This document shows, piece after piece, positions 9,750 to 64,000 of a stretch of 64,000 nucleotides of DNA. This DNA comes from Nitrospira defluvii (GTDB lineage: Bacteria > Nitrospirota > Nitrospiria > Nitrospirales > Nitrospiraceae). Below the pieces are notes generated by a model that ran no database searches, had not been told where the DNA came from, and saw only the letters and a program-made list of their open reading frames with translations. The stretch lies in the NCBI GenBank assembly GCA_011525625.1, contig WYAX01000003.1:186001-250000 (forward strand). The letters run 5' to 3'. The translations under genes and the position numbers were made by a program. Each line of letters starts with the position of its first letter. The first letter of the stretch is position 1.

Positions 9750-9844
9750 GAGGGATCGGAGAACCGGTGCACGAGAGCAATCGAGATACTATAGGCTCTT
9801 CTCTTCGACGTGTCAGCTCGCGCTTTTCCCCCTCTCTCCCCCCG

Positions 9845-10366: not shown

Positions 10367-10557
10367 GTCGTCGTTTCTCTGGCTCAATCGGTGCGGCCGC
10401 CGTGCCGTGCTCGGCGGCCTGCGATGCCCGGCACTGGTGACACTGCGGGCGCCAGCCTAGTGCCTCCCAGGGGAAAAGAGAATGATCGAATTCCTGATCG
10501 GCCAGGCGAGGCCTTGATTGTGAGGACGGACGTCGCGGGATCGAGATTGTCGGTCCG

Positions 10558-13500
10558 TCAGGCGGCAGGATGGAGGGAAGCGGCCCTGGCGCGCACCCAG
10601 CGCAACCGTAGGCGATCGAGGAACAGGTAGACAACGGGCGTCGTGTACAGGGTCAGGACCTGACTCACAAGGAGACCTCCGACGATCGCAATGCCCAACG
10701 GACGCCGCAATTCCGACCCCACCCCCGTGCCCAGTGCCAGCGGGAGCGCGCCCAACAGGGCTGCCGCCGTGGTCATCATGATCGGACGGAACCGGAGCAA
10801 ACAGGCTTCGTAAATCGCCGCCTGGGGAGTCTTGCCCTCCCCCATGCGTTCGCTCTGCAGCGCAAAATCGATCATCATGATGGCATTTTTTTTCACAATG
10901 CCGATCAAGAGCATGATCCCGATCAAGGCGATCATGCTCAGTTCGGTCTTGAACAACAGCAACGCGAGCAACGCCCCGACGCCGGCCGACGGAAGGGTCG
11001 ACAGAATCGTAAGCGGATGGATGTAGCTCTCGTACAGAATCCCCAACACAATGTAGACCGTGACGAGGGCCGCCAGAATCAACCACGGCTGATTCTCCGC
11101 AGACGACTGAAATGCTTTGGCGGTTCCCTGGAAGGTACCGCGCACGCCAGCAGGCAGACCGATGTCATGCATCGCCTGATCGATCGCCGCCACGGCCTCG
11201 CCGAGCGACGCGCCCGCCGCCATATTGAACGACACGGTCACTGCGGGGAACTGCCCCTGGTGATTGACGGACAAGATGGCATTGGCCGGTTCATACCGGG
11301 TCACCGCGCTCAAGGGCACTTGCGCACCGCTCGGCGAGCGCACATAAATGTCATGGAGCGCGGCGGGGTTCTGCCAGTACTGCGGCGCGACCTCCATCAC
11401 CACGTGGTATTGGTTGAGCGGTGTATACATAATCGACACCTGTCGTTGACCGAAGGCATCGTACAGCGTGTCATCGATCAGTTGAGGCGTCAGGCCGAGT
11501 CGCGACGCCGTGCTTCGGTCGAACACGACCAGCGATTGCTGGCCGCGGTCCTGCTGATCGCTGTTCACATCCACGATTTGCGACAGCGTCCGCAGCTTGC
11601 TCTCGACTTTGGGCGCCCAGGTATTGAGGTCGTCCAGGTCCACGCTCTGCAGGGTATATTGATATTGTGCGCTGCTCGCCCGCCCGCCGATACGCAAATC
11701 TTGAATCGCTTGCAAATAGGTCGGCGCACCCGGAACCTTTGCCAGCTTGGGGCGCAACCGAGCCATCACCTCCTCGGAACTCATGCGCCGCTCTTCAAGC
11801 GGCTTCAATGCAATGAACATCCGCCCCGTGTTCGTCGTACCGGAATGACTCCCGCCGCCGGTGAACCCCGTAATGCTCGCCACCGCCGGATCGCTCTGGA
11901 TGATGCCCACCACCTCGGTCAGCTTATCGCGCATGGCTTGGAATGAAATATCCTGCGCGGCGCGGATGTTTCCAAAGAGGCGCCCTGTATCCTGCTGCGG
12001 AAAGAACCCTTTCGGCACGAGTATATACAGATAGATCGTGAGGGCCATCGTTGCCAAAGTCACCACGAGCATCGTGCGGGGATGCCGGAGCACCCAGGCC
12101 AGACTCGACGCATACCCTCGCGACATCGCATCGAAGCCCCGCTCGCTCAGGCGATACCACCAACCATGGCCGGCGTCCGCCTCCGATTTCAACACCCGCG
12201 CGCACAACATGGGAATCGTCGTCAGCGACACCACCAATGACACCCCGATCGCCACCGACAGCGTCACAGCAAACTCACGAAACAAGCGGCCCATCATCCC
12301 GCCCATCAAAAACACCGGAATGAAGACCGCCACCAGGGAGAGGGTCATCGACACCACCGTAAACGCGATGTCCTTCGCGCCCCGCAAGGCCGCCTCCATG
12401 GCCGGCACACCCTGTTCGCGATAGCGCGTGATGTTTTCGAGCACCACGATCGCATCGTCGACCACAAAGCCGGTGGCGATCGTCAACGCCATCAGCGACA
12501 AGTTGTCGAGGCTGTAATTGAGGAGATACATCACGCCGAACGTGGAGATCAGCGAGACCGGGACCGCCACCGCCGGGATCAGGGTGGCACGTAGATTTCG
12601 CAGAAACACGAACACCACCAGAATCACCAAGGCCACGGAGATGGCCATGGTGCGCTCCACGTCGTGCAGGGAGGCACGGATGACGGGAGTGCGGTCCATC
12701 ACGATCGACAACGACATGCTGCCCGGCAGCGACGCTTCCAATTGCGGCAATCGCGCACGGAGTCGATCCACTGTTTCGATGATGTTGGCCTCGGGTTGCC
12801 GGTAGATGATCACCAGCACCGCCGGCGTACCGTTCGCCACGCCCATGGTCCGCAAATCTTCGACCGACGATTCCACCGACGCGATATCGGACAGATGCAC
12901 CGCCCGCCCGTTGCGATAGGCCACGATCAACGGCAGATACTCTTCCGCCCGGTGGAGTTGATCGTTGGTTCGGATCTGCCACGTGCGATCGGCGGCGGTC
13001 AGCTGCCCCTTCGGCCGATTCACGTTCGTGCTGGTCAGGACCTCGCGCACGTCCCCCAGTCCGATCCCGTACTTATTCAACGCCGTGGGGTTAAGATCCA
13101 CCCGAATGGCAGGCAGCGACCCACCGCCCACGGCCACTTGGCCGACACCTTCCACCTGCGACAGTTTCTGCTGCAGGATGCTGGAGGCCGCGTCGTACAT
13201 TTGACCGCGCGTGACCAGGTCGGAGGTGATGGCCAAAATGAGAATGGGCCCGTCGGCCGGATTCACGATGCTATAGCGAGGAGCGCTCGGCAAATTGGGG
13301 GGAAGGTCCACACGAGCGGCGTTGATCGCCGCCTGCACGTCGCGTGCGGCTCCGTCGATATCGCGGGTCAGTTCGAACTGGAGCGTGACGTTGGTGCCGC
13401 CCATCGTGCTGGAGGACGTCATCTCCGTCACGCCGGCAATCCGGGTGAACTGCCGCTCCAAGGGCGCGGCCACGGACGAGGCCATCGTCTCAGGGCTGGC

Positions 13501-13659
13501 CCCCGGCAACGAGGCCGAGACATTGATCGTTGGGAATTCGACCTGCGGCAATGCAGCGACCGGCAGGAACGGAAACGCCACGATCCCGATGAACGTCGCC
13601 CCGAGGGTCAATAACGTCGTGGCCACCGGACGTCGGACAAAGGGAGCCGAGATATTCAT
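10558..13659 (-). CDS. mdtC: RND multidrug efflux transporter, MdtC-like subunit
   Basis: Inner-membrane proton-driven exporter of 1033 residues, the usual RND length. It begins [17 protein letters not shown] with the first membrane helix. It shows the conserved intramembrane block [17 protein letters not shown] in the first half, with the two aspartates that carry protons, and the matching helices in the second half ([23 protein letters not shown]). Its start overlaps the stop of mdtB by ATGA, so translation is coupled. MdtB-MdtC pairs form a hetero-trimer fed by the adaptor MdtA; an outer-membrane channel is not encoded here. Confidence 0.93.
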
Positions 13660-16600
13660 GGACGACCTGTCGGCAACGCCTCGCCCACGAGGTCCCGCCC
13701 AGGGCTGCGGCGGAAATGCGCCGCCAGCCGATCCAAGGCGAGGTAGACCACCGGCGTCGTATAGAGCGTCAGGAGCTGGCTCAAGATCAACCCGCCGACG
13801 ATCGCGATACCCAGCGGACGTCGCAGTTCCGAGCCGACCCCAGACCCCATCGCCAGCGGCAGGGCCCCGAAGAGCGCGGCCATGGTGGTCATCATGATGG
13901 GGCGAAACCGCAAAAGCCCGGCCTCGTAAATGGCTTGTTCCGGCGACTTGCCTTCATTGCGCTCGGCGTCCAAGGCAAAGTCGATCATCATGATCGCGTT
14001 CTTTTTCACGATGCCGATCAACAGAATGATGCCGATCAGCGCGATGATGCTGAAATCCATCCGAAACAATAACAGAGCCAAGAGCGCGCCGACGCCGGCG
14101 GAAGGCAGCGTCGAGAGGATGGTGAGCGGATGAATGTAGCTTTCATATAAAATGCCCAGGACGATGTACACGGTGATCAATGCCGCCAGAATCAGCAACG
14201 GCTCATGCTCCAGGGAGCTTTGAAACGCCTGCGCGGCGCCCTGAAAATTCCCGCGGATGCTGGCCGGCAACCCCAACTCTTGCGTCACCTGCCGGATCTC
14301 CGCCACCGCCGCGCCGAGCGAGCCGCCGGGCGCAAGGTTGAATGAGATCGTGACCGCAGGAAACTGGCCCTGCCGGCTGATCACGAGCGGCACCGCGGTT
14401 TCCGTCACCCGAGTAAAAACGTTCAACGGCACGGATCCGCCGCTGCCTCGCACTTCCAACGACTGCAACGCCTCCGGCCCCTTCTGAAATTCCGGCATCA
14501 CCTCAAGAATCACGCGGTACTGATTCAGCTGCGTGAACATGGTCGACACTTGTCGCTGCCCAAACGCATCGTACAAGGTGTCCGTGACGAGCTGGGGGGT
14601 AATCCCCATGCGGGAGGCCGTATTCCGATCGATTTCCACCAGGGACGCGAGTCCGTGCGTGAGCTGATCGCTGCTCACATCGCGCAACTCAGGCCGTTGT
14701 TGCAGCGCCTCCAGCAGTTTCGGCGCCCAGCGGTTCAACTCCTCCGGATCGGCGTCTTCCAACGTGTATTGGAACTGGGTCCGGCTGACGCGATCTTCCA
14801 CGGTGAGGTCCTGCACGGGCTGCAGATGCAGCGTCAGTCCCTCCACCGCAGCGACACGCGCCTCAAGTCGCCGGATGATGTCGCCGGCGTCGCCGGACCG
14901 TTCCCGGAGCGGCTTGAGATTGATATACATGCGCCCGCTGTTCAGCGTCGTGTTCGTCCCGTCGACGCCGATGAAGGACGTCAGGCTTTCCACCGCCGGC
15001 TCTTCCAGAATCGCTTGCGCCATCACTTGCTGCCGTTCGCTCATGGCCTTGAACGACACGGACTGCGGCCCCTCTGTGATGCCGAGAATGACGCCGGTAT
15101 CCTGGAGCGGGAAGAAGCCCTTGGGAATGAGGACGTACAGCGCGACCGTTACGACCACCGTCGCACCCGTCACCAGCAACGTGGCGCGCTGTCGGCGCAA
15201 GACCCAGCGCAAGCTACGGCCATAGCCTGCGATAATTCGGTCCAAGATCCGCTGCGAAGCCCTCGCCATCGGGCCAAGCCGTTCCTCGCGCCGTTCACGC
15301 AGCAACCTCGCACACATCATCGGCGTCAGGGTCAGAGAGACGAGCGCTGAAATCAGGATGGTGATGCTCAGCGTCACGGCGAACTCGCGGAACAGACGCC
15401 CGACCACATCGCCCATGAACAACAGGGGAATCAACACCGCGATCAGGGACACGGTGAGCGACAAAATGGTGAAGGCGATCTGCTTGGAACCCTTGAGCGC
15501 GGCCTGAAACGGCGAGTCCCCTCGCTCGATATAGCGCGCGATATTTTCGATCATGACGATGGCATCGTCCACGACAAAGCCGGTAGAGATCGTCAGCGCC
15601 ATCAAGGTCAGGTTGTTCAAACTGAATCCCAACAGATGCATCACGCCGAAGGTCCCGACCAGGGACAATGGCACCGCCACCGCCGGGATCACGGTCGCGG
15701 GGAGCGTCCGCAGAAATACAAAGATCACCAGAATCACGAGCGCCACGGCCAGTACCAGTTCCACCTGCACGTCACGGACCGTCGCGCGGATCGAGGTCGT
15801 CCGATCGGTCAACACCGACACCTGCACCGAAGAGGGTAAGGTCCCCTGCAACTGCGGCAACAAGGCCTTCACCCGGTCGACCACCTCGATCACGTTCGTG
15901 CCCGGCTGACGCTGGATGTTGACGATCACTGCCGGCGTCTCGTTCATCCAGGCGGCTTGTTTGGAGTTCTCCACGTCGTCGAGGACCTCCGCGACCTCCG
16001 AGAGACGAACCGGCGCGCCGTTACGATAGGCGACGATCAGCGCCCGGTAATCCTTGCTGGAGAACAATTGATCCGTGGCATTGATGATCGAGGCGCGCCG
16101 CGGGCCATCGAACCCGCCCTTCGCCTGATTCACGTTCGCCGCCGCCACCACCGTGCGCAGGTCCTCCAGGGTCAGCCCATAGGCGGCCAACGCGCGCGGA
16201 TTCGCCTGGATGCGCACGGCGGGACGCTGCCCTCCGCTGATGCTCACCAGACCGACACCGGACAACTGTGAAATTTTCTGTGCGAAACGGGTTTCCGCCA
16301 GATCCCGCACTTGAGGAAGCGGCAACGTGGCCGAGGTCAGGGCCAGCGTCAGGATCGGCGCATCGGCGGGATTGACCTTGTTGTAGACCGGCGGGGCCGG
16401 AAGATCACGCGGCAGGAAGGCGGCCGCGGCGTTCATCGCCGCCTGCACCTCTTGCTCCGCGATATCCAGCGCGATATCCAGACTGAATTGCAGCGTGACG
16501 ATCGAACTCCCGCCCGAACTGCTGGAGGTCATCTGGTTCAAGCCGGGCATCTGCCCGAACTGGCGCTCCAGCGGCGCGGTGATCGAGGAGGTCATGACGT

Positions 16601-36751: not shown

Positions 36752-37868
36752 AGGCATCACCCAGCGGAAAGGCCGGGAAGGGTGGTGGGTGCGTGTGTAT
36801 GTCGATGGGCGGGAGCGCTGGTATCGGTGTGACACCAAGAGCCAAGCCAAAGCCCTCTATGGCCGTCTGAAAAGCGAGCACCGTGAGGGAAAGTATTTCG
36901 AAAAGACCAAGGCCGTTCCATTCCTTGAGATTGCCAAGGAATACCTGCAGATGGTGGATTCTCGCCGCGCACGCAAAGGCGACGATTTGGCGCGAATGAA
37001 TCGGTGGATCACCGCCTTTGGCGAGCAAGACGCCGCAACGATCACGCCCCGACAGATTGAAAAAGTGCTGACCGCCCTCCAAGCGGAAGGAAAAGAACCC
37101 GCCACGCTGGTCCGGCATCTCACCGTACTGAAGGCGACATTGAATCGAGCCAGACGGTTGGGCCTGTTGCGGGATAACCCTGCCACCCTTGTGAAAGCCC
37201 CCAAGCCGAACAATGTCCTGGTGCGATATCTGACTCCCGACCAGGAGACGCTGCTCCTCGAACGGTTGCCGCTCGCCTACCACTCCATTGTGATCACGGC
37301 AATGCATACCGGCTTACGGCAAGGAGAACTCCTCAGACTGACCTGGGCTGATATTGATTGGCACGTGGGAGTCTTGACGATTCATGAAACGAAGGCCGGA
37401 GAACGTCGGAGAGTCCCGATGAACTCAATCGTCGTGGGGCTGTTCAGTCAGTTGAAAGAGGAACGGTCCCCTTCACCGCTCGATCCGATTTTTCCGCATG
37501 ATGTCCGGTACCTCCGACGTGCCTTTGATCGGGCCGTGAAAGCGGCAGGGATACATCCGTTTCGTTTCCATGACCTTCGACACACGTTCGCATCACGATT
37601 GGCTATGCGGGGAGCCAACGATCGAACCCTTATGGCACTTGGAGGCTGGAAGTCACCCGCGATGTTGAGTCGATACGCACATCTGTCGCCCGCTCATCTC
37701 TGGCAGGCAGTGGAAGGACTCACGCAATCTTCAACCGTGACCAAAACCGTGACCGAGCCACTAGTCGAGTCAGAGGAAGCAGCGAAGTTATTGAAAGATA
37801 TGGTGAGTCGGCTGGGATTCGAACCCAGGACCCTCGCCTTAAAAGTTCGGCAAGTGGCAATTTACTAG
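36726..37868 (+). CDS. int: Tyrosine recombinase (integrase) of element B
   Basis: 380 residues, GTG start with AAAGGAG upstream. The N-terminal part has an AP2-like arm (GWWVRVYVDGRERWYR) and a core-binding domain (about residues 65-150). The catalytic domain shows Arg in GLRQGELLRLTWADI, HDLRHTFASRL, a tryptophan in GGWKSPAMLS where many relatives have His, and the nucleophile in SRYAHLSP. The last residues (MVSRLGFEPRTLALK and on) are encoded by the right att copy, so excision would change its C-terminus. It should integrate the element into tRNA-Lys. Confidence 0.93.
   Translation: MARKEGKDRGITQRKGREGWWVRVYVDGRERWYRCDTKSQAKALYGRLKSEHREGKYFEKTKAVPFLEIAKEYLQMVDSRRARKGDDLARMNRWITAFGEQDAATITPRQIEKVLTALQAEGKEPATLVRHLTVLKATLNRARRLGLLRDNPATLVKAPKPNNVLVRYLTPDQETLLLERLPLAYHSIVITAMHTGLRQGELLRLTWADIDWHVGVLTIHETKAGERRRVPMNSIVVGLFSQLKEERSPSPLDPIFPHDVRYLRRAFDRAVKAAGIHPFRFHDLRHTFASRLAMRGANDRTLMALGGWKSPAMLSRYAHLSPAHLWQAVEGLTQSSTVTKTVTEPLVESEEAAKLLKDMVSRLGFEPRTLALKVRQVAIY
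37799..37845 (-). repeat. att site: 47-bp fragment of tRNA-Lys(UUU), right copy
   Basis: Perfect second copy of 29626-29672, lying inside the 3' end of the integrase gene. The 5' half of the tRNA does not follow on the right, so this is a junction between two stacked elements. The intact tRNA is expected beyond the right edge of the window. Confidence 0.9.
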
Positions 37869-38758: not shown

Positions 38759-39199
38759 TTATCGAACCATTCTCCAGTACACTTGCAGATCAGTGAGATT
38801 CACTTCGCATGAAGTCGGACTCTGCGGCGCCTCTTTGAAGTGTTCAGCACTGACTAATCCATTTAAGAAAAATACAAGCGCCGCCCAGATTGCCAATGAA
38901 AGCTGTTGGCCATGCTTGAAACTATCAAAGGCGGTAGAATCACCGTACTTTCTGAAAATCACAAAATATTCGAACCAGAACCACACTGGAGTGACAATTA
39001 CCCAGAACGTTAGCCACGGATAAATCAACTCAACTTGTCGACACTTCCAGCCCGCATACGCAAAGTGAAGAGAACAGAAAGCTAAAATCGCCGCCAGAGT
39101 CCCGGCGGCTGAGCATATCAAATACCCACGCTTGCCCTTCGCTCCATGATAAATAACATGGTCGCCTCCTGTAGGCCCGGGATCCTTTATCCTTCCCAT
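38759..39199 (-). CDS. Small multi-pass membrane protein
   Basis: About 146 residues with three membrane helices: GYLICSAAGTLAAILAFCSL, IYPWLTFWVIVTPVWFWFEY, and LSLAIWAALVFFLNGLVSA. The start at 39199 is the choice that does not run into the upstream gene; it lies 14 bp after the stop of the alpha/beta hydrolase, so the two are probably cotranscribed. Not recognised. It may anchor or accompany the neighbouring lipoprotein hydrolase. Confidence 0.6.
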   Translation of the reverse strand: MGRIKDPGPTGGDHVIYHGAKGKRGYLICSAAGTLAAILAFCSLHFAYAGWKCRQVELIYPWLTFWVIVTPVWFWFEYFVIFRKYGDSTAFDSFKHGQQLSLAIWAALVFFLNGLVSAEHFKEAPQSPTSCEVNLTDLQVYWRMVR

Positions 39200-39213
39200 C
39201 TGAGTGTGTCCAA

Positions 39214-40986
39214 TCAATAATGGCCAAGTTCGCGATAGCACTCCCTTGGATGCTTTGGCGGGCCAGCCCAGCATTTCGGAATCCAGAACTTAAGTCTTCC
39301 TCCAAAGTCGCCATGCTTTTGTGGACTTAATACCCCTTCTCCAACTCCAAACTTTACAATACTAATAGAAGGTCGAATTAGGGCCGGGGTGTGATGAGCG
39401 GCTGCAATAAAATTTGTAAAACGACCAAGAGTACGATCCTCTCTGCTCAAGGGATGACTCAAGAAATTGTCCAACCAAACGAGTAACGATCCGCGTGGAA
39501 AAGGGTCCAGAATATCGTTAAACCATTCCCCAGATTCAGCCGCTTCGTGAAGCATGAGGTGATAGACGCAGACAATATTCCTACCATCAGCGTTGGAATC
39601 ATTTGATGCGTTTTTTGTGTCACAAAGGCTAGTGAGATCTCCCGAGGCTGTTCCCACATTTCTTTCTAAAAGATAAGGAAAGATAGTATCTTGGTAATCC
39701 TTAATGGTACTAGCTGCTGCCATATAAACCACATTCCTGATCGGGAGATCTCCGAACTCTCTTATAATACGATTAACGATGATGGCTCCCGTCGAATGAC
39801 CTACCAGAGTTATTTCCCAACTATCCTTATTAGGACAACCCTCTCTATGAGAGCTTCGTGTACTCACGGTCTGTTTATCGTAATTGCAAATTTTCGTTCG
39901 TAACTGGTCAAAAAACACAGCCAGAGCGCCTGTGCGTGTGAAGTCATATTCGACGTCCTCAGATTCATCTTCGTTCCTATTGGGAAGGGGGGAGCCATCG
40001 TAATGGAATAGCTGAGCAACGCTTCGGAGCATCACATCCCAAGAGCTAGTACCGAATGCATCGATTATCGGAGCAGAAGCCAGCTTGAAAGGAGACGTAA
40101 TAACATACTTGAGTGACGCCCAGAATTTGTCTGACCATGCTCGTTGGTCGAGACCGAGCCACATGTTAAAATCTTCGCTATTCTTAGCTTTCGGGTCACT
40201 GAGTTCGCCCTTCCTGGCTCCTTCAGTTTTTGGACAGTCGGCAATTTGCTTATCCAAGGCTGTCATGTACTCGTACAAAGCGCCTTCAACCCACGCGGAC
40301 GGACCAAACCTTCTACGACAGAGTTCATCAAATGTTGCTTGTTGAGCAAGTACAAGGTCGGATGAATGAAGAAAGCGGAGGGCAGGCACAGTCTCAATAT
40401 CATTGCGGACTTGAAAAAACGTCGCAGTTGGGATGCGAATGGCTGATCGTGCAATGTCTGCACTGAGATAGAAGGGCGCGGTGGCATAAGCCCATCCCTG
40501 GCTCCATGATCCCTGAGACCAATCCTCGGCTTGGCGAATATGTGTCAGGTGATTCCAATAACTGGGAAAAAACGATGACTGCCAATTAATGAACACTGGA
40601 TAAGCGTCTGTGTCCTTCAAGACATCTTGACTAAGCTCGATGGCACGCTCGACTGTTCCGGTCTGAAAATTAAGACCGCCGTGCACATGAATTAAAATTT
40701 TGTGAGGTCTCCTCTCTTTCTTATGCTCCTCAAGCCCCTTCAATACATTCTTAATGTGACGACCATATTCGCTAATAGTTCCAAACTGTGAATAACTTCT
40801 AAGAATACTCTGCCGTTTGTTACAGTTTCCTTCTGTGTCCAGCTCGCATGGGCCATATCCTCTCGGATCAACAGGATGACCGTCCGCATCAACCATAATG
40901 ATGTTGGCATAAGGTACGCTCTTTACCAAGCTCCCACACCCTAACGTGCCAAGTATCCCGATTAGCACCGCGAATCGAATCACCAT
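39214..40986 (-). CDS. Lipoprotein alpha/beta hydrolase
   Basis: 590 residues. The lipoprotein signal ends GILGTLGC (Cys about 17). The fold of a serine lipase/esterase is seen in KILIHVHGGLNFQTG (oxyanion region) and in the nucleophile elbow ITLVGHSTGAIIVNR (GHSTG). A later histidine in AAAHHTPALIRP may complete the triad. It should act at the inner or outer membrane face. It lies between a DUF2235 lipoprotein and a small membrane gene, in a row of envelope hydrolases. The substrate is unknown; membrane lipid or ester-linked cell-wall groups are plausible. Confidence 0.75.
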   Translation of the reverse strand: MVIRFAVLIGILGTLGCGSLVKSVPYANIIMVDADGHPVDPRGYGPCELDTEGNCNKRQSILRSYSQFGTISEYGRHIKNVLKGLEEHKKERRPHKILIHVHGGLNFQTGTVERAIELSQDVLKDTDAYPVFINWQSSFFPSYWNHLTHIRQAEDWSQGSWSQGWAYATAPFYLSADIARSAIRIPTATFFQVRNDIETVPALRFLHSSDLVLAQQATFDELCRRRFGPSAWVEGALYEYMTALDKQIADCPKTEGARKGELSDPKAKNSEDFNMWLGLDQRAWSDKFWASLKYVITSPFKLASAPIIDAFGTSSWDVMLRSVAQLFHYDGSPLPNRNEDESEDVEYDFTRTGALAVFFDQLRTKICNYDKQTVSTRSSHREGCPNKDSWEITLVGHSTGAIIVNRIIREFGDLPIRNVVYMAAASTIKDYQDTIFPYLLERNVGTASGDLTSLCDTKNASNDSNADGRNIVCVYHLMLHEAAESGEWFNDILDPFPRGSLLVWLDNFLSHPLSREDRTLGRFTNFIAAAHHTPALIRPSISIVKFGVGEGVLSPQKHGDFGGRLKFWIPKCWAGPPKHPRECYRELGHY

Positions 40987-41263
40987 TTCTTTACCTTCGT
41001 CCTTGAAGTCGCGTTATTGCTGGTGTGGCGGATCAGAGAAAACTCCTTAACGGTCTACGCAACTTATTGAGTGCAACAGAATTCATACTGAGCCATACCA
41101 TAGTTCAGCTTACAGAAACCAAGAATGTGCGGGAGTGAAGGCTGCAGTTCACGGTGACCCTATTGGTATGCTATTACTCAGCTTAAATCTCAGGCTGAAA
41201 AGCCTGTGCTTCGGCCATTTACGGTGTGAACAGCAGGTATCACACAGTCGTGAAATCGATGCG

Positions 41264-42694
41264 CTAGTCTACGACCACGAAATTCTTCTCGAAATACTCT
41301 TTGGCGTTACCTGGATTAGGCCGGCCTAAAAATAGATACTGCCCGTCCTGTTCACGTTCAGGGTGACCACGGAACAATTTTTCTAGTGCGATTCTTCGAA
41401 GCACACTGCGATGAATACTATCCCCGCTGTGCGGTTTTCTTGGAAAGCTTCCCATCCACCTCAACCATCCGAACGAACCGTCGAAATATTCATCGTGCAA
41501 AAGGCCACAGTCACACTCGATAAACGGACCGCCCCCCTGGTCACAACCACACCTAAGAGAAGAGGTTTTATCTTGATGGGCCATTTCATCCAGCTCTTGA
41601 ACTGAAGGAAGTATTTCGAACTTCGATAGTTTTTTAATCATCCAATTTAACGGCGTAGTAGCGATACCCCTGAAGTCGTCCTTAGATGTGCAGTTGTATT
41701 CCAGTGAATAACTTCCACCAACATCGGAATGCACCCCGGCAAACCACACTTCTTCAAGCTGGCTACCTTCTGTCGCACGTAAAGGGTCGAACCGGAGAAG
41801 CCGAAAATCGTCGCGTTGCTCATCAAGAGCAAGTGCATGGAAGCCGTATTGCGCATAGAGATCCAATCGATGGTCGTCCGGCTCATCATCACGAACCAAC
41901 CCCAATGCTGGAACTGTATCAAAAACCCCTATTGCTGTTACTTTTACTTTCTGTGAGTCTTTAAATACCTTCATGTTGCGTGCTCTAATTATCTCATCCA
42001 ATTCTTCTTTGACTCTTTTTTCGAATCCAGGTCTCCCATCGAAATTTTGATGATAAACGTCATAGAGAGCGCCTATACTAAAATGCAGATTTGTTACACC
42101 AGGCAATGGAAGATAGTCATGCCACTTCTTCTGAACAGTTTCTTCGTCGACTAGGCCAGCAAACTCAATTAGTCCATTTAGTGATCTTGCAGTGAATGCT
42201 CCTCGGCTAAACCCGATAAGGTAAATTTCATCTCCCGGCGTATAGGCCTCCACTAAAAATCTATAGGCTTGACGAATATTTAAGCTAGTTCCCCTTCCTC
42301 CGATTCCGCCTGTGACACGGTTAATCCACTTAGCGCCGACTCCTTTGTCATAATAAGGAATCACACGATTTCCTTTACAGGCATGTTGCACGGCTAACCG
42401 ATACAGCTTCCTCACATTTGTTGATGATGTCTTGTCATTACCGGTTCCGTCCATGAATACAATCAGTTTGCGGGGCTTGCCGCCCTCTGGTTTTTGCGGA
42501 TCTCTGGCATAACGCTTGTCGAATGTTTTCCAAAATTCACGATTTGCCAAATATGTATCACTCAGCCCATCGGCCTCCATCGCCTTGAAGGAATCACACA
42601 GTCTTGGAAGCTCACCTTCGTTTTGGGCGAGCATTCCCTTGGGGACACATCCAACGATGAGCACAGTCGCCATGATCAATATGAAGACGCTCAT
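41264..42694 (-). CDS. DUF2235 lipoprotein (Tle1-like phospholipase fold)
   Basis: About 476 residues. The lipobox is IMATVLIVGC. The DUF2235 core follows: KLIVFMDGTGNDKTSSTNV, then the nucleophile elbow YLIGFSRGAFTARSLNG, and GVHSDVGGSYSLEY with the expected Asp and His neighbourhood. This fold is shared with Tle1 phospholipases of type VI secretion, but no secretion genes are near, and the lipobox points to attachment in the producing cell. The start at 42694 has a GGGGGAG site; the upstream ATG at 42727 has none. Confidence 0.85.
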   Translation of the reverse strand: MSVFILIMATVLIVGCVPKGMLAQNEGELPRLCDSFKAMEADGLSDTYLANREFWKTFDKRYARDPQKPEGGKPRKLIVFMDGTGNDKTSSTNVRKLYRLAVQHACKGNRVIPYYDKGVGAKWINRVTGGIGGRGTSLNIRQAYRFLVEAYTPGDEIYLIGFSRGAFTARSLNGLIEFAGLVDEETVQKKWHDYLPLPGVTNLHFSIGALYDVYHQNFDGRPGFEKRVKEELDEIIRARNMKVFKDSQKVKVTAIGVFDTVPALGLVRDDEPDDHRLDLYAQYGFHALALDEQRDDFRLLRFDPLRATEGSQLEEVWFAGVHSDVGGSYSLEYNCTSKDDFRGIATTPLNWMIKKLSKFEILPSVQELDEMAHQDKTSSLRCGCDQGGGPFIECDCGLLHDEYFDGSFGWLRWMGSFPRKPHSGDSIHRSVLRRIALEKLFRGHPEREQDGQYLFLGRPNPGNAKEYFEKNFVVVD

Positions 42695-43177
42695 TCTCCC
42701 CCTGCCATCAATAATAAGTCGACTCAAGCGCTTAAATAAGCATTACCACTAGAACCATAAGAGAACTGTCGTAGCTTAGAATTTCAATTGCTGCGCCTCG
42801 TGACTCAGATACGCCATTATCGGAATGTAATTCTTCATCCTTCTGGAGTAGTAGTAGATACAACTACGTTTTACAATAGGGCCGAATGGCCCTGACTACT
42901 TATATTGGCTCGTCGTATTTAGGTCGCGATTTTGTTGGGGTTCCGATAAATAAAGGCCATTCCAAGGCTGGAATCAATGAGAGGGCAATTCTAATGAGCC
43001 ACAAAAGAGTCGATATCGCATGCACAACGTGATGGCGCTTCGCGCCATCAGATATTTTACAACAGCGAGAGTGAGAAGCAGACAGCATTGCCCCGATCAC
43101 TAGCCTGCCTGAGCTCTACAGTGTCGACGACCACAGAAGGATTTTCAGCCCTAGGCAGCAAGAATCCAATATGTTGG
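42695..43177. other. 483-bp gap inside the hydrolase cluster
   Basis: No gene is supported; short open frames lack ribosome sites. It contains the terminator-like hairpin at 43031-43049. It probably separates two transcription units of the hydrolase cluster. Confidence 0.5.
43031..43049. terminator. Terminator-like hairpin
   Basis: GATGGCGC and GCGCCATC form a perfect 8-bp stem around a TTC loop, 129 bp downstream of the beta-propeller gene. The T-rich stretch is on the plus-strand side only, so termination strength on the minus strand is uncertain. Confidence 0.5.
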
Positions 43178-44314
43178 TCATTTGGCACAGACATGAGCCT
43201 GTTTTAGATCACGGACAGGCACAGCTAAAATGAATGGATCAAAAACTTGCCCAATATAAAGGGTGTTATTGAAGTAAACGGCTGAGGAGGGTGCACTGAG
43301 CATAGTCCCATCTGTTATGAAAACCTTGTTGAGTGTCGGGCTCCCCTCAATATCGGTAATGCGAAAAATAGAGCCACCAGCCGTCATAATTTCTGAGCGG
43401 TGTAGCATAAAAGATAATCTTGAATTGTGAGATGCCGTGAGGACATCGTGATCAGGACCTTCGCTCATATTGTCAGGCATACTCATTTCCAGAACTTTCT
43501 TCTGCCCTGTCGAGCCAGGCAGAGGATGTATCGTAACAGTGTCTGCCAAAGAATCTCCGATGAGTAGATAGTTTCCGTGTATAAGAACGCCGTTCGGAGC
43601 TTTTGCGAGGTCCGCTACGGATTCCCATCCTTTAGTTGACAAGCGCAAAGTGGGGGTGGTCCGCATGCCCAACACATTCGACTTTAACCAATTTACTAGG
43701 AAGCTTTTCCCTGTCGAGGAGTTGGTTACATAGATATTTCCATGTGCATCCGCGTCTACATCATTCGGATTAGTCAGTTCTTCATTAGGGCCAAGAGTCT
43801 TATCGTAGACGAGTTCGTTTTCAAGAACAGTGTAGCGCACTATCCATTCTTCAGTTCCATGTACAACGACATATAGAACTTTCCTGTCGTCAATCATTGC
43901 GAGATCAAGGCCATGGGGATGAAAGGAGTTGATCAGCTGAGCAGGCTCTCCCCTTCGAGGCATTTCACGAATCTCATGCGTGACCAGATCAACGTGAAAT
44001 ATCTTTCCTCGCGTTTTGGTCGCTCTTCTATTCTGGGAGGATATGATTAGCCTTGGCCGTTCAGCGGATACGTCTAATGCCAAATCCTCGGGGCCGAACA
44101 TCCCAAGAGCGATTTGCTGCGAAGCTGCCGGTAGCTGCGTACACTCGACACGGACCTCTGCCGGTAACTGTCCGCACCCAACGATGAGGGCAAGGATCAG
44201 GCTGGCGCACGTCGCACCAAGATATCTTGAATGCACCATCCATAGTCGGCGCCCTTGAGAGGTCTGTCGGAGAAGACGCGCGGCAATTAAATCCCTTCGT
44301 GCAGGAACGTTCAT
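43178..44314 (-). CDS. Lipoprotein with beta-propeller (SMP-30/paraoxonase-like)
   Basis: 378 residues. After a positively charged leader and a membrane helix, the lipobox is LALIVGCGQ. The mature part has propeller blades: FGPEDLALDVSAERPRLIIS, HPHGLDLAMIDDRKVLYVV, NPNDVDADAHGNIYVTNSS. These recall the calcium-site ND motif of paraoxonase/lactonase and SMP-30 proteins. It starts 9 bp after the MBL-fold gene and has AAGGAC before it, so the two are an operon. A lactonase or esterase activity at the membrane is likely but unproven. Confidence 0.75.
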   Translation of the reverse strand: MNVPARRDLIAARLLRQTSQGRRLWMVHSRYLGATCASLILALIVGCGQLPAEVRVECTQLPAASQQIALGMFGPEDLALDVSAERPRLIISSQNRRATKTRGKIFHVDLVTHEIREMPRRGEPAQLINSFHPHGLDLAMIDDRKVLYVVVHGTEEWIVRYTVLENELVYDKTLGPNEELTNPNDVDADAHGNIYVTNSSTGKSFLVNWLKSNVLGMRTTPTLRLSTKGWESVADLAKAPNGVLIHGNYLLIGDSLADTVTIHPLPGSTGQKKVLEMSMPDNMSEGPDHDVLTASHNSRLSFMLHRSEIMTAGGSIFRITDIEGSPTLNKVFITDGTMLSAPSSAVYFNNTLYIGQVFDPFILAVPVRDLKQAHVCAK

Positions 44315-44323
44315 GTAGTGTCC

Positions 44324-45355
44324 TTACTGAAAGGCTTTTATGTCAAATGGTTGAAAAAGAGGCATAAATTGTACGGAGATGCGATCCCGCTCCGCCATTC
44401 TTAAAAGCGTTTTGTATCCACCAGTGAAGTCATCCACGAGATAGGGCATCGGCAATAAGGGTTCGTCAAGCGGACGAAGAAGATCGTCCCAATGGATTGG
44501 AACTACAAATCTTGCTTTACTAGCTAGTACTACGCTCCTCCAATACTCTTCCGCAAAACATTCCGACTGCGAACCAAGCATGCCCAGGCTCAGAAAAACC
44601 ACATCAGCTTTGATATTCTCAAATAAGTTAGGTGAGAAGTTTGCACTCGGATGTATGAGGACCGTTCCCCACCGGTGACGTATAAGGAAGGAGAAATTTT
44701 TTCCTGCTCTATACTCTCCAACCCGCGCCGGAGGTTGAAGAGTTTGGTTGATGTCCTCAGAGAACCACGGATCTGGAGAATGCGGTGATTCAAAAATCTC
44801 AACGATAAAATCCCCATACCGCAGCTTATCACCATGATTCACTTCAATTATCCGATCGTCTGGCAAGCCTTGACCTCGCCCGATTTTGGCGGTCGATTTT
44901 GAGCCAACAAGTACTGCACTTTTGCGAACCGCCACAAATGCTGAATCCATAGCATGGTCATAGTGGGAGTGCGCGACGAGTACGGCAGCCAGGTTTCCTA
45001 CGCTGCCCTTTGCGAATGCATAATTTATCCTGTCTATATCCGGCGAGATTTTTCCGAACAGCATCTGCGCTAATCCTGGACGAGAGAAAAAACCATCAAT
45101 CATCAGGGCAGTGTTCCCGTCATCGATTTGAATAGTAGTAGCGCCAAAATATCGTATGTGAAGCGACTCCTTATTCAGCCCATCAACAGTAGCTTTCATT
45201 GTGTGCAGCATTACTTTCTCTACGGAGGGATGAGTAAGCCTGTCGCAGCCCAAAAGCCCAACATTGGTTAGAATTGTGAGTGCGAAGGAGAGACTAACTA
45301 GTCCGAAGGATCTGAGCGAAGTCGCACAAGCTTTTATTATTGTGAATTTGCGCAT
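44324..45355 (-). CDS. Lipoprotein MBL-fold metallohydrolase (UlaG/RomA-like)
   Basis: 343 residues. The signal ends NVGLLGCDR (lipobox). The zinc motif VAHSHYDHAMDS (HxHxDH) is present, with further ligands in SPHSPDPWF and PIHWDDLL. This resembles the NAPE-PLD/RomA branch of MBL enzymes, some of which act on N-acyl-phosphatidylethanolamine or lactones. Next to lipase-like lipoproteins, a lipid substrate is a fair guess. It is closely followed by the beta-propeller gene. Confidence 0.8.
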   Translation of the reverse strand: MRKFTIIKACATSLRSFGLVSLSFALTILTNVGLLGCDRLTHPSVEKVMLHTMKATVDGLNKESLHIRYFGATTIQIDDGNTALMIDGFFSRPGLAQMLFGKISPDIDRINYAFAKGSVGNLAAVLVAHSHYDHAMDSAFVAVRKSAVLVGSKSTAKIGRGQGLPDDRIIEVNHGDKLRYGDFIVEIFESPHSPDPWFSEDINQTLQPPARVGEYRAGKNFSFLIRHRWGTVLIHPSANFSPNLFENIKADVVFLSLGMLGSQSECFAEEYWRSVVLASKARFVVPIHWDDLLRPLDEPLLPMPYLVDDFTGGYKTLLRMAERDRISVQFMPLFQPFDIKAFQ

Positions 45356-45452
45356 AGGAGCATGAAAATTATTACACGTGCAATAACTACGTATACATCG
45401 GTGAACCTAAGCTCCGGAATATTAAATGAATAAGCATCCATCGACCAGCGTT

Positions 45453-47078
45453 TCAAGTGGGGATTGAACTTCCCCTCTTCACGACATTTGGCTTATGAAT
45501 TATCCTTGCAATCAATGCCCAAGCGCCAAGACAGATAAAATGGCAACAGAGCATAAGTAGCGCCAGGAGCTTAGTCCCCGTAAGTCCTGCAGTGAGCCAT
45601 AAGATAACGTCATGAGTTCGATAAGCACCTACCGGCTCATTCAGCAAATACAATGTAAGTGTATTTTCGACCACATCGCTTCCGATCAAAATCCACAAGG
45701 GTATTAAACTGCTCCAGTGTGCGGCACGATGAAGAACAGGCTTGGTGGTTAGCTCAGCCACGATTCGACGGCCATAAACTAGAAGCCAGCATACTGCACC
45801 GGAGTAGGCAAGAATGAATAGGTAATCGGCGAGATATCGTTTAATCATTCGGCTGGCATTCACGGTGCCGAAAAGGTTCTCAATACCATCACCCCGAATC
45901 ACATCAAAAAAGAGGGCCATATTGAATTCGTGACGAAAAAGGTCGGAGGGATTAAATTGATAATCACATGGCATGGAACAAGCCCAGTAACTGAGCAGCT
46001 GGACTACAAACAACATCACAAGCGTTCCGCTGATCCAGCTCAATGCCGACAAATTTTTCCGTAAAGGCTTCCAGACTGCCTTGATGTTTTTCGCCTTTTC
46101 ACGTTCGCTAAACGACCAATGTGGTTCGACCCCGAGGACACTTAGACGCGTCCGCAGACCTGACAGAGCCCAAAGTGGCTGGCTAAACGCCTGGTCGTGG
46201 GCAAGCCCCAACGGATCAATTTCAATGGAGTTGACCTTGGCCAAATCGCACAGCAATCCTTTTTCTATTGCCTCCTCGACCATCCACTTTAAACTACAGT
46301 TGGATAATCCAGACTCTTTGTATGAGCCTCCGACATCACTGTGAGCACCGGCAAACCGTAATTGCTTTAGTGAGGTCCGACCATGGTCGAAATTGTTGTC
46401 TTTAAATAGCCTTGGTTCGTATGCATAGCGATACTCATGAGAAGCCACAGCATGGCGAACATGATCGTAATTTTTCCCACTAATGGTTCCGTAACTTGTA
46501 ATATTCTTCTTCGACCCTGGAAGACCTCCAACCGTACTGACAGTATCCCAAACACCCAGGAAGTACACCCGAGCGTCTCGACCTTCGAGTGTAAACACCG
46601 CGCGTATATCATCGCCATAATCTTGCCTGGTACTTCCGGTACGCCCCGTCCCCTCGATTGGTTGAAAATAGATACGCGTTAATGAAGGAATCATTGCTTC
46701 TGCCCCTCGGCGAACAATTCCAAACAAATTGATCATGCCTGCCACGCATCGCGCTGTGAACGCTCCACGGGAAAAGCCGAAAATGAAAACACGGTCCGTG
46801 GGCTGATAATGCTCGACCAAAAAGCCATAAGCCTGTCCGATGTTTTCGTAGATACCACCACCAATCGCTAAACCCACTATTTCTTTCGCTCGCGCCTTTG
46901 CACGACTAATTTTTCCTATTGATGGATATGTATCGCTTGTACCGACACCTGGATCGTAGAAAAGTATTTGCTGTTCATTTTTCTGAATAATTCGGACGAG
47001 TTTGACGACGTTCGTATCGCAATCGTTCCCCCATATATTCCCTGTCCCATCACAGCAAACCACCAGATTTCTAGACAC
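45453..47078 (-). CDS. DUF2235 hydrolase with C-terminal membrane helices
   Basis: 541 residues, GTG start with AAGGGTGAG upstream. The N-terminal half is DUF2235: NLVVCCDGTGNIWGNDCDTN, then the elbow FIFGFSRGAFTARCVAG, and FAGAHSDVGGSYKES. The C-terminal half holds about four membrane helices (near residues 346-366, 420-440, 456-476, 495-520). This is a common DUF2235 form whose lipase domain faces the cytoplasm. First gene of the hydrolase cluster on the minus strand and a second DUF2235 copy within 5 kb. Confidence 0.85.
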   Translation of the reverse strand: MSRNLVVCCDGTGNIWGNDCDTNVVKLVRIIQKNEQQILFYDPGVGTSDTYPSIGKISRAKARAKEIVGLAIGGGIYENIGQAYGFLVEHYQPTDRVFIFGFSRGAFTARCVAGMINLFGIVRRGAEAMIPSLTRIYFQPIEGTGRTGSTRQDYGDDIRAVFTLEGRDARVYFLGVWDTVSTVGGLPGSKKNITSYGTISGKNYDHVRHAVASHEYRYAYEPRLFKDNNFDHGRTSLKQLRFAGAHSDVGGSYKESGLSNCSLKWMVEEAIEKGLLCDLAKVNSIEIDPLGLAHDQAFSQPLWALSGLRTRLSVLGVEPHWSFSEREKAKNIKAVWKPLRKNLSALSWISGTLVMLFVVQLLSYWACSMPCDYQFNPSDLFRHEFNMALFFDVIRGDGIENLFGTVNASRMIKRYLADYLFILAYSGAVCWLLVYGRRIVAELTTKPVLHRAAHWSSLIPLWILIGSDVVENTLTLYLLNEPVGAYRTHDVILWLTAGLTGTKLLALLMLCCHFICLGAWALIARIIHKPNVVKRGSSIPT

Positions 47079-48387: not shown

Positions 48388-48965
48388 TTACATCGGAAGG
48401 GCTGGTTTGAGGTACTCCTCACCAAGGCGCTTGTCTGCGGCGAACCTGTAGGCATGATCCCTGGCTTGATCGTGGGACTGCCTCGCCCACTGGAGGATTG
48501 AGGCCTGCGCCAACTTGGTTTCGTTTTGCCCCATCAGAAAGTAATCAATCTGATCCACGGCCTGTGTCGCATCCACGGCGTAATGGTCGAGTAGCCCATT
48601 ATCCCCAACCCTGATGAAGATTCCATGTTTTTTGGTAAAGGGATTCACGGCCTTCCCCAGTGATTCCGCCTTCACGTTATTGCCGCCTCTGTCCTGATTC
48701 TGGCAGGCATGAAGCGGATGGTGAAGACCCCCGACAAAGTGCACCAGGCACTTGATGGCTTGCTGTCGTTTGTCAAATGGAACCCGAGAATCACCTGGCG
48801 TCTCACGAAACCGTTCGATCTGCCCCACCACACTGCGATCCGGACAGTGTCGATCAGGCTCGTACTGCGTCAGAAACTCTAGCGGTCGGAACCAAGCGCT
48901 CCCCTGCCAGCATCAACAAGATGGCATGACCATTCGTATCCCAGCCATAGAAGCCTAGAACATTG
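48388..48965 (-). pseudogene. S1/P1-type nuclease, internally deleted
   Basis: The 3' part keeps the zinc-site region of S1/P1 nucleases: KCLVHFVGGLHHPLHAC and QDRGGNNV, then a helical end. The 5' part survives in another frame as YGWDTNGHAILLMLAGERL, the usual WGxxGH opening. Between them most of the N-terminal half is lost and the frame is shifted. The gene is therefore broken. These enzymes normally are secreted and need zinc to cut single-stranded DNA or RNA. Confidence 0.75.
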
Positions 48966-59746: not shown

Positions 59747-60034
59747 ATGTTACTCACGGCCAAAGAATTAGCCCAAGAGCTCGATGTGCATGTCTCAACA
59801 GTTCGACGGGCTTATCGTACGGGGCGGATTCCGTACGAACGCCTCTGCAAAATGTATTTGTTTGACCTCGAAAAAGTACGGCATGCGATGCGGCTTAACG
59901 GATTTACTCTCGTCGCGACCGAGGACGGCCTGCGCGCGACCGGCGGCGATAGCGGGCGGCGCGCGCAGCCGATCAGCCCCCGACTTGGTAAGACGGGGGC
60001 GTCTATCGCACAGAAGCCAAGGGGGAAGAAATGA
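59747..60034 (+). CDS. Phage helix-turn-helix (excisionase-like) protein
   Basis: 95 residues. The N-terminal two-thirds is a MerR/excisionase-type DNA-binding domain (LTAKELAQELDVHVSTVRRAY, with LFDLEKVRHAMR). The tail is basic and disordered. AAAGGGTGG precedes the ATG. It overlaps the Rep gene by ATGA and follows the repeat array, so it likely regulates the phage module. Confidence 0.85.
   Translation: MLLTAKELAQELDVHVSTVRRAYRTGRIPYERLCKMYLFDLEKVRHAMRLNGFTLVATEDGLRATGGDSGRRAQPISPRLGKTGASIAQKPRGKK
59976..60000. repeat. Hairpin inside the HTH gene, candidate replication origin
   Basis: GCCCCCG and CGGGGGC form a 7-bp stem with an 11-base loop ACTTGGTAAGA, 31 bp before the Rep gene. Rolling-circle origins often carry the nick site in such a loop near or inside rep. 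Alternative: a transcriptional attenuator within the coding region. Confidence 0.4.
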
Positions 60035-61023
60035 ACGGTTCTGGAGGATTCACCCAAACCATCGATTGGTTGGCCTTCACGCTGCCCAAAGCGGAAGTCG
60101 CCGACGTGATTGCGCTGATTGGTGGCGATTGGTTCCAGAGTGAGACCGGGTTTCGGGGCTACCCCGTCGCTCAACTCATGTCACAGGGCAAGACGGGTGT
60201 CGGCAAACTGGGGACGGGTGCTCCTCGCAATCCAAAGGAAGTGCATGTGGATCTATCAGCCGGGATTGTCTCCCAGTGGGATGAATCCAAGTTGAAGACC
60301 GTGTTGGCCTGGATCTTTTCCCAGAAAGGCCATGTGACCCGCATCGATGTGGCCTTGGACGACCGGGAGGCGTCTGTCGCAGTGGAGACCGTGCGCCTCG
60401 CCGTGGAGGCCGGACAGGTGGTGAGTCGTTCGAAGCAATTCAAAGTCATCCAAGCTTCGAATCATCGTGAAGGCGTCCGGACCGGCGAGACGCTCTACTT
60501 CGGGAGTCGAGAGAGTCAAACGATGCTCCGGGTCTATGACAAACGGCTGGAACTCCAAGCCAGAGGACGGGAAGACGCGGGATTGTATGGGGTTCGATGG
60601 GAACTGGAATTTAAACAGGATCGAGCTCAAGCCTGCGCCAAAGCCCTCCTTACGCTCGATCCCGAAGATTGGCGAGCGTTCCTAGTCGGCGTCCTCCGCT
60701 CCTATGTGGATTTTCGCGAGACCACGCGAGAAGCGGAATCCTATGAAAAGTATCGTGCGCCGTTGGTGAGCTGGTGGAAGGCCCTCACCGAAGGCTTCAT
60801 GCGCTGCCGGCTGGTGGTCGAACGCATTCAGCAGCGGTTGGATGATGTGGCCGCCTGGCTGGCGAACGCCATCAGTCCCATGCTCGCGGTGGTGGTGGCC
60901 TGTCGGGGCGATCAGTTTCTGTTCGAGATGATCTATGCGGGCACCAAACGATGGACGCAGAAGCACTTTGCTTTACTGAAGCAACGTAAGAGAGGCACCC
61001 CCTATGTCCTTAAGTTTTCATAA
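60031..61023 (+). CDS. Phage replication initiation protein (Rep_trans type)
   Basis: 330 residues. Family marks are GHVTRIDVALDDREASV (metal-ligand strand), TLYFGSRESQTMLRVYDKRLE (with the reactive tyrosine region), and YGVRWELEFKQDRA. It should nick the phage origin and start rolling-circle replication. The start overlaps the HTH stop by ATGA. Length and motifs fit inovirus Rep proteins. Confidence 0.9.
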   Translation: MNGSGGFTQTIDWLAFTLPKAEVADVIALIGGDWFQSETGFRGYPVAQLMSQGKTGVGKLGTGAPRNPKEVHVDLSAGIVSQWDESKLKTVLAWIFSQKGHVTRIDVALDDREASVAVETVRLAVEAGQVVSRSKQFKVIQASNHREGVRTGETLYFGSRESQTMLRVYDKRLELQARGREDAGLYGVRWELEFKQDRAQACAKALLTLDPEDWRAFLVGVLRSYVDFRETTREAESYEKYRAPLVSWWKALTEGFMRCRLVVERIQQRLDDVAAWLANAISPMLAVVVACRGDQFLFEMIYAGTKRWTQKHFALLKQRKRGTPYVLKFS

Positions 61024-62848: not shown

Positions 62849-63120
62849 CCGCGATTCTCACGCTGATCTATTGCTGGCTGCAGGAGTTCTTCTTCTCGCT
62901 CAGCGATTGGGGCCTCGGCATCTGGGATTCGCTGCTTTCCGTGGCGGACAGCACGCTCGCCACCATTGGCACGGCAGGCCTCACGCTGCCGGTGATTCCG
63001 GATCAATACGCGTGGGTGCTGGGCGCGACGGGTATGAGTCAGGCGCTGGCCATCCTGGCGAGCGCCATGGGCACCCGGTTCATTCTGCAAACCATTCCAT
63101 TTGTGCGGTGGGGCTCATGA
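62845..63120 (+). CDS. DUF2523-family phage membrane protein (pVI-like)
   Basis: 91 residues with two membrane segments (around residues 2-20 and 60-82: LGATGMSQALAILASAMGTRF). DUF2523 proteins lie between the adsorption protein and Zot in inoviruses and are thought to cap the virion. The start overlaps the previous stop by ATGA. The frame is open further upstream, but that part shadows the previous gene. Confidence 0.85.
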   Translation: MTAILTLIYCWLQEFFFSLSDWGLGIWDSLLSVADSTLATIGTAGLTLPVIPDQYAWVLGATGMSQALAILASAMGTRFILQTIPFVRWGS

Positions 63121-63203
63121 ATCAGCTGGTGATCGGGTGGGCCTATGCCTGGACGGCGGTCTTAGCCCTGTGGATCTGGGTGTATCTCAGGAGTCTTCGA
63201 TGA
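63117..63203 (+). CDS. 28-residue membrane peptide
   Basis: A single membrane helix (IGWAYAWTAVLALWIWVYL) with a basic tail (RSLR). Its start overlaps the DUF2523 stop, and its stop overlaps the Zot start, both by ATGA, which supports translation. Role unknown; a small assembly or cap protein is plausible. Confidence 0.7.
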   Translation: MNQLVIGWAYAWTAVLALWIWVYLRSLR

Positions 63204-64000
63204 TCGAACTGTATGAAGGCGTGCCCGGATCGGGAAAGTCGTATCACGCGATCTGCGAGAAGTTTCTCCCCTGGGTGAAACAAGGTCGACGGCTCTATAT
63301 CGCCGTCGATGGGATCTATTTAGATCGTCTTTCCCTGTTCACCGGTATTGAACTGTCTACTCTCGAGCAACAGATCACCATCTGGAAGGATTCCGTCGAA
63401 GTCCTCCAAGCCTTTCCCCATGTCGAGCCGGGCTCAGCGGTCATCATTGACGAAGCCCAGACCGTCTTTCGGTCCATGCAGAAGGTCGAGCCAGGACTGC
63501 TGCGTTGGCTCGAAACTCATCGGCACTATGGCGTGGATATTCTGCTCATGAGCCAAGACTTCCGCCAGATGTCGCAAGGTGTCACGCGATTGATTGAAGC
63601 GACGGTGAAGTTTCGGAAGCTCAGCTTTGTCGGGCTCTCCAAAAAGTATCAGGGTAAGGTGCGCGGGAACCCGGAAGATAACGAAGTCATCCGGGCCTTT
63701 GTCGGGACCTATTCGCCGGCGATCTATGCCTACTATTCCAGTTATGCGTCGGCAGCCATTCGGGAAGAGAAGCGCAGTCATACCGTCTTTAAGTCGGCGC
63801 GGGTCGCGATCGGCATTGCCGCAGGACTGTTTGCCATCGGCCTCATGGTTTGGCGTCCATGGTCGTCGTTAAGTGCGAGCAAGCCAGTCTCTTCCGGCGG
63901 GTCAACTCCTGCCGCAACCACCACCATCGGCGCACCAGTCTCCGGTTCGGCGACTCTGCTGAATCCATTGGGCATGTCTTCTCCGACAGCAACTTCTCCG
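63200..64000 (+). CDS. zot: Zot-like phage assembly ATPase (cut by window edge)
   Basis: 267 residues visible. The N-terminal ATPase has Walker A YEGVPGSGKSYHA and Walker B AVIIDEAQTVF. A membrane helix (VAIGIAAGLFAIGLMVW) follows at about residues 206-222, then a Ser/Thr/Pro-rich periplasmic part that runs off the window. Zot/pI proteins drive virion assembly and export through the envelope. ATG at 63200 overlaps the stop of the 28-residue gene. Confidence 0.92.
   Translation, partial: MIELYEGVPGSGKSYHAICEKFLPWVKQGRRLYIAVDGIYLDRLSLFTGIELSTLEQQITIWKDSVEVLQAFPHVEPGSAVIIDEAQTVFRSMQKVEPGLLRWLETHRHYGVDILLMSQDFRQMSQGVTRLIEATVKFRKLSFVGLSKKYQGKVRGNPEDNEVIRAFVGTYSPAIYAYYSSYASAAIREEKRSHTVFKSARVAIGIAAGLFAIGLMVWRPWSSLSASKPVSSGGSTPAATTTIGAPVSGSATLLNPLGMSSPTATSP

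What the first reader, a model, noticed from the sequence alone, without database searches (positions are those of the whole stretch)
38759..47078. Cluster of envelope lipoprotein hydrolases, possibly an undescribed system
Six minus-strand genes in element C include four consecutive predicted lipoproteins with different hydrolytic folds (alpha/beta hydrolase GHSTG, DUF2235 GFSRG, beta-propeller lactonase-like, MBL-fold HxHxDH), plus a second DUF2235 with membrane helices and a small membrane protein. I know of no described system with this set. No type VI secretion, VgrG or recognised immunity gene is near, and the lipoboxes place the enzymes in the producing cell. They could act on membrane lipids, defend against phage entry, or degrade lipid-like signals.
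Basis: partly seen in the sequence, partly recalled or inferred. Interest (0 to 1): 0.8.

Follow-up and report, generated by a model that had tools for sequence, protein, structure and literature searches.

The report
Mobile cassette of envelope lipid hydrolases
A phage-like DNA island, almost identical in two different Nitrospira-family bacteria, carries a row of six genes, four of them predicted to encode membrane-anchored enzymes that likely cut lipids or lipid-like esters at the cell envelope; our literature searches found no description of such a set.

The parts
38759..39274 (-). M1: small ORF with two hydrophobic stretches; likely start at codon 26 (39199) if it is a gene
   Evidence: no family match; present in G028
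39214..40986 (-). ABH: lipoprotein alpha/beta hydrolase of an unnamed family (GHSTG Ser398, His558 invariant)
41264..42727 (-). TLE_lipo: Tle1-like (DUF2235, PF09994) hydrolase with lipobox; likely start at codon 12 (42694)
43178..44314 (-). PROP: paraoxonase (PON1)-family six-bladed propeller lipoprotein
44324..45355 (-). MBL: metallo-beta-lactamase-fold lipoprotein, HxHxDH and the other ligands kept
45453..47078 (-). TLE_TM: Tle1-like hydrolase domain without signal peptide, C-terminal membrane helices
47590..48027 (+). SLATT/2TM-like membrane protein, divergent neighbour; membership in the cassette unproven
   Evidence: weak PADLOC 2TM (E 1e-3) and NCBIfam SLATT_4 below cut-off
37801..37845 (.). 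45-bp repeat of the tRNA-Lys(ttt) end: left end of the carrying island (right copy at 66969-67013, outside the window)
60031..61023 (+). Rep_trans replication initiation protein of the island
63101..64000 (+). Zot/pI-like inovirus morphogenesis ATPase (runs on to 64207 in L160); integrase follows at 65745-66953, outside the window

Best explanation
Four lipobox-bearing hydrolase genes, a membrane-anchored Tle1-like hydrolase gene and a small ORF lie side by side as cargo of an inovirus-like island, and their products likely work at the producing cell's own envelope to hydrolyse lipid esters and lactones, probably so that the host can scavenge or turn over lipids. Shown: gene content, families, kept catalytic residues, recurrence of ABH with MBL, DLH, paraoxonase, patatin and FadL genes in other loci, and recent transfer of the whole island between species. 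Inferred: lipoprotein export, enzyme activity, lipid substrates and the benefit to the host. In the proposed route ABH and the lipoprotein Tle1 release acyl chains from phospholipids or other lipid esters, the paraoxonase opens lipo-lactones or aryl/lipid esters, the MBL enzyme cleaves a phosphodiester or lactone, and the inner-membrane Tle1 handles lipid arriving at or inside the inner membrane.
Confidence: 0.4

Rival explanations
1. Envelope defence or superinfection exclusion: the lipoprotein enzymes alter the host's own envelope lipids or receptors so that other phages cannot enter, and the membrane Tle1 may act as a membrane-damaging effector.
For: The island also holds HigBA-like, AbiU/AIPR, PDC-S42 and type IIG restriction genes. 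In 7 sister islands, 10 of 20 large cargo proteins scanned match PADLOC models at 1e-15, in 4 of 7 islands. Inovirus genes can cause superinfection exclusion (PMC6813254, passages).
Against: None of the six matches PADLOC at E 0.1. ABH loci elsewhere show no recurrent defence family (no control set was run). None of the 12 fetched sister stretches carries the cassette.
Confidence: 0.27
2. Signal quenching: paraoxonase and MBL open acyl-homoserine or other lipo-lactones, the esterases remove acyl chains.
For: Two folds known for lactonases side by side (PON; MBL with HxHxDH).
Against: MBL is far below the NCBIfam cut-off for L-ascorbate-6-P lactonase (30 vs 306 bits); two Tle1-like and one ABH hydrolase are not needed for quenching; no lux-type genes were sought.
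Confidence: 0.12
3. Chance gathering of unrelated hydrolases on a mobile island, without joint function.
For: Gaps of 277 and 483 bp between some genes; six-gene set not seen outside the island; PROP found in 3 of 235 genomes.
Against: MBL lies within 3.4 kb of ABH in 4 of 4 genomes and in a Verrucomicrobiales contig; PROP lies 6 kb from an ABH relative in G132.
Confidence: 0.13
4. Antagonism: Tle1-like and other enzymes are toxins against neighbouring cells.
For: DUF2235 is a toxin domain in polymorphic systems (PMC3482391, passage).
Against: No VipB in the genome, lipoboxes and membrane helices keep the enzymes in the producer, no immunity-like gene identified.
Confidence: 0.08

Closest known systems
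Tle1/DUF2235 phospholipase family (PF09994)
   Same: Catalytic domain over the Pfam cut-off, GFSRG, D and H motifs
   Different: Lipobox or C-terminal membrane helices instead of T6SS delivery; no VipB in the genome
Paraoxonase (PON1) family
   Same: Sequence profile, full-length predicted fold, site residues
   Different: Bacterial lipoprotein inside a hydrolase cassette; about 25% identity
UlaG-like / Lactamase_B_2-B_3 metallo-hydrolases
   Same: HxHxDH, further His, Asp, His ligands
   Different: Lipoprotein; below NCBIfam cut-offs for named members
Alpha/beta hydrolases of the PF05990 (DUF900)/lipase type
   Same: GHSxG, predicted fold
   Different: Large insertion, no Pfam family over cut-off, mostly lipoproteins
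Inovirus-like integrated elements with defence cargo
   Same: Rep_trans, Zot, integrase, att repeat at tRNA-Lys
   Different: 29.2 kb against about 5-15 kb (size from PMC6813254, passage); this one also carries envelope hydrolases

Membership tests
T6SS Tle1 effector | PF09994 catalytic domain with GxSxG | tested here: met
   (207 and 236 bits, cut-off 27); GFSRG in both sequences
T6SS Tle1 effector | T6SS in the genome | tested here: not met
   VipB 0 of 1, control rings in E. coli; Hcp and VgrG not searched
Paraoxonase | PON1-like propeller over its whole length | tested here: met
Paraoxonase | calcium and His site residues | tested here: met
   E76, D77, H134, H152, N184, N241, D281, N282 invariant in 13 of 13; H, H, N, N, D, N positions align with PON1; E/D pair matched from recall
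Paraoxonase | lactonase/esterase activity | not testable with these tools
   needs an assay
L-ascorbate-6-phosphate lactonase (UlaG) | NCBIfam PRK11709 cut-off | tested here: not met
   30.2 of 306 bits
MBL-fold metallo-hydrolase | metal ligands | tested here: met
   H129, H131, D133, H134, H192, D251, H288 in 21 of 21
Alpha/beta hydrolase (ABH) | GxSxG nucleophile and His in an alpha/beta hydrolase fold | tested here: met
Known anti-phage defence system | match of the cassette proteins to PADLOC-DB models | tested here: not met
   0 of 6 at E 0.1; library of 2023
Bacterial lipoprotein | lipobox after a hydrophobic signal | tested here: met
   four of six by sequence; processing not testable here
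Inovirus | Zot/pI and replication initiator | tested here: met
Inovirus | genome of about 5-15 kb | tested here: not met
   29.2 kb between the repeats
Inovirus | major coat protein | not tested
   small ORFs near Zot were not examined for it

The most novel reading that the evidence does not exclude
An inovirus-like island arms its host with a lipoprotein-based envelope shield: four different surface hydrolases and an inner-membrane phospholipase remodel the host's own lipids to exclude competing phages, a kind of defence that works by lipid chemistry at the envelope and not by nucleic acid or suicide.
Probability: 0.15. Interest if true: 0.78.

Novelty: new variant of a known kind. Interest (0 to 1): 0.5.

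Why it matters
Nitrite-oxidising Nitrospira are hard to grow and few of their envelope enzymes are known. A transferable set of paraoxonase, MBL, Tle1 and ABH lipoproteins would show that lipid hydrolysis at the envelope is under strong horizontal selection, either for lipid scavenging or as protection. It also links bacterial paraoxonase relatives to phospholipase neighbourhoods, which gives a testable hint about what such enzymes do outside animals. The island family shows a variable cargo position in inovirus-like elements where unknown genes sit among defence genes.

Tried and rejected
T6SS effector reading: rejected as membership because VipB is absent. Plasmid or phage relatives of the cassette: no DNA match in plasmids, no ABH protein match in plasmids or phages, no TLE_TM match in phages. 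ABH in viral contigs: 2 distant loci (26% identity), not followed. Zot of this island in viral contigs: no match. First ABH scan of genome contigs found nothing; the permitted second scan with the alignment gave 37 loci. DLH as a fixed partner: it occurs in 67 of 235 genomes, so it is partly a core gene; only its clustering is informative (genomes are related, so no probability is claimed). Promoter scan: 10 sites against 12.5 expected, no information; terminator-like sites 12 against 8.0. Rfam: no match in the window. The S1/P1 nuclease ORF at 48388-48831 was considered as a seventh part and left out because it lacks its N-terminal part. Barrel-like neighbours of ABH in five loci are my reading only; Pfam gave no barrel family for the two scanned.

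Full report
WHAT IS THERE. I call them, in transcription order, TLE_TM (45453-47078), MBL (44324-45355), PROP (43178-44314), TLE_lipo (41264-42727), ABH (39214-40986) and M1 (38759-39274). Four consecutive ones have a single N-terminal hydrophobic stretch that ends in a lipobox Cys by direct reading. TLE_TM has no signal peptide and four C-terminal hydrophobic windows, two overlapping. MBL has Asp after the lipobox Cys; in E. coli that would favour the inner membrane (recalled rule, not tested for this phylum).

CONSERVATION OF THE NEIGHBOURHOOD. Across 235 Nitrospirales genomes ABH is found in 53 at E 0.001, 28 of them with a segment of at least 110 bits (counted). MBL is found in 8; four are strong (376-781 bits: G000, G028, G069, G136), the other four reach at most 47 bits. 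In all four strong cases ABH is near: 3.3 kb away in G000 and G028, 45 bp away in G069 and G136, where the order is DLH-MBL-ABH. G000/G028 share one island and the G069/G136 loci are 96.3% identical, so these are two independent cases. A third is contig L101 (Verrucomicrobiales): ABH (cut by the contig end), DLH overlapping it by 4 bases, then MBL 26 bases on. PROP is found in 3 of 235: G000, G028 and G132, where it lies 6 kb from a divergent ABH relative; between them are two patatins over the Pfam cut-off, a weakly matched metallopeptidase-like protein, and a Het-C/Zn-phospholipase-C-like protein. In the homologue tables five ABH rows and five MBL rows share exactly the same longest contig length (11330, 7615, 44632, 13521, 5670), all five among the 11 best ABH rows, and one PROP row shares 11330 (using 50 of 120 listed ABH rows, all 120 MBL rows and all 12 PROP rows); that these are the same contigs is inferred. 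DLH, in 67 of 235 genomes, is within 10 kb of ABH in 11 of 15 genomes that have both. FadL (PF03349) lies 18 bp upstream of ABH in L053 and, in two pieces, directly upstream in L056. Results against a tight unit: the six-gene set is in 2 of 235 genomes; Tle1-like genes are in 90 of 235, five in this genome, and the TLE_TM paralogue in L063 (61% identical) has no MBL or PROP within the 20-kb stretch; of two MBL plasmid contexts read, Alteromonas has a lipoprotein that I read as an alpha/beta hydrolase 53 bp upstream (not scanned against a library), while Variovorax has GIY-YIG and HipA neighbours.

DEFENCE OR NOT, BY NEIGHBOURS. I took up to four nearest proteins of 150-1000 aa within 5 kb of ABH at 29 loci, 114 in all. 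Against PADLOC at 1e-10, 88 families matched, of which the 25 commonest are shown; none matches more than 3 of 114, and OLD/Gabija-like models match one member. Against Pfam the commonest are response regulators (5 of 114) and oxidoreductases; FadL 3 members (2 loci), PhoD 2, Lipase_3 2. No control set of random loci was run.

THE CARRIER. A 45-base repeat of the tRNA-Lys(ttt) end lies at 29628, 37801 and, outside the window, at the tRNA gene at 66969. The unit from 37801 to 67013 is 29.2 kb. In G028, a one-contig genome, the sequence from 37785 to the tRNA gene is 99.84-100% identical; mismatches begin at the first base after the tRNA gene, and beyond it most aligned segments are 72-79% identical (range 67-83%). 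The island was therefore exchanged recently, and contamination is unlikely because each copy sits in its own flank. It holds Rep_trans, a Zot/pI-like protein (E 9e-29), RadC and a tyrosine integrase. G+C is 0.47 in the cassette stretch, 0.50 in the next 12 kb, 0.57 in the phage part and 0.60 in the first 29.6 kb of the window. Zot relatives are in 44 of 235 genomes, four places in this genome. Twelve sister stretches share Rep (86-96%) and Zot (86-92%), but upstream of Rep carry other genes; none matches ABH, TLE, PROP or MBL at E 1e-5 in the DNA fetched, some of which ends early. Of 20 large cargo proteins from 7 of the 12, 10 match PADLOC models at 1e-15, in 4 of 7 islands: Hma, type IIG and type II restriction, a Lamassu-like LmuB match and others. 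For L180 and L187 the left end was not seen, so that all scanned genes belong to the island is inferred there.

HOW IT LIKELY WORKS. Shown: families, residues, lipoboxes, linkage, transfer. Inferred: that the lipoproteins are exported, that they act together and that the common denominator is lipid esters or lactones. I prefer lipid scavenging or turnover (0.4) because ABH outside the island keeps company with FadL, PhoD, patatin, Zn-phospholipase-C-like and DLH proteins and not with defence genes. The position in the island argues for defence (0.27), and both can be tested in laboratory strains.

LITERATURE. Seven searches listed no paper on such a cassette; I saw listings with abstract starts, and passages only of PMC6813254, PMC3482391 and PMC5080386 (it mentions Nitrospira only in passing). 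The library holds open-licence papers only, so absence is limited to it. Family membership of the host: contigs of G136 and G069 have the lengths of named Nitrospira contigs (27162 and 297908) and both genomes are of the same family as G000.

Noticed in passing
L180-L191 (sister islands), upstream of Rep: Inovirus-like islands in Nitrospiraceae share Rep/Zot but carry different cargo, in several cases restriction, Hma or other defence genes; a cargo position for defence discovery.
   Followed up: partly
L183:6387-13898 and L190 (oriented 6622-13986): Giant cargo proteins of 2,503 and 2,454 aa beside Rep; the first has no PADLOC match at 1e-15, the second was not scanned.
   Followed up: no
L060:1513-10430 (G132): Paraoxonase, two patatin lipoproteins, a metallopeptidase-like and a Het-C/Zn-phospholipase-C-like protein and an ABH relative in a row.
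   Followed up: partly
L044:6109-10710 (G124): SIR2-like, PhoD-like and ABH genes in a row on one strand.
   Followed up: no
L114, L118, L123, L127, L129, L132: A Tle1-like protein of about 530-570 aa is followed by a small conserved lipoprotein (the family name DUF3574 is recalled, not searched) in many genomes of one genus.
   Followed up: no
window:48388-48831: S1/P1-nuclease ORF lacking its N-terminal part (profile 87-236 of 258).
   Followed up: partly
window:29628-37845: Second unit between two copies of the 45-bp tRNA-Lys repeat, with an MmeI-type enzyme and an integrase: tandem insertions at one tRNA gene.
   Followed up: no
L038, L045, L050, L054, L055: A signal-peptide protein ending in Phe, read as a possible outer-membrane barrel, lies beside ABH in five loci; Pfam gives no barrel family.
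   Followed up: partly
window:47590-48027: SLATT/2TM-like membrane protein divergent from TLE_TM, inside the island.
   Followed up: no
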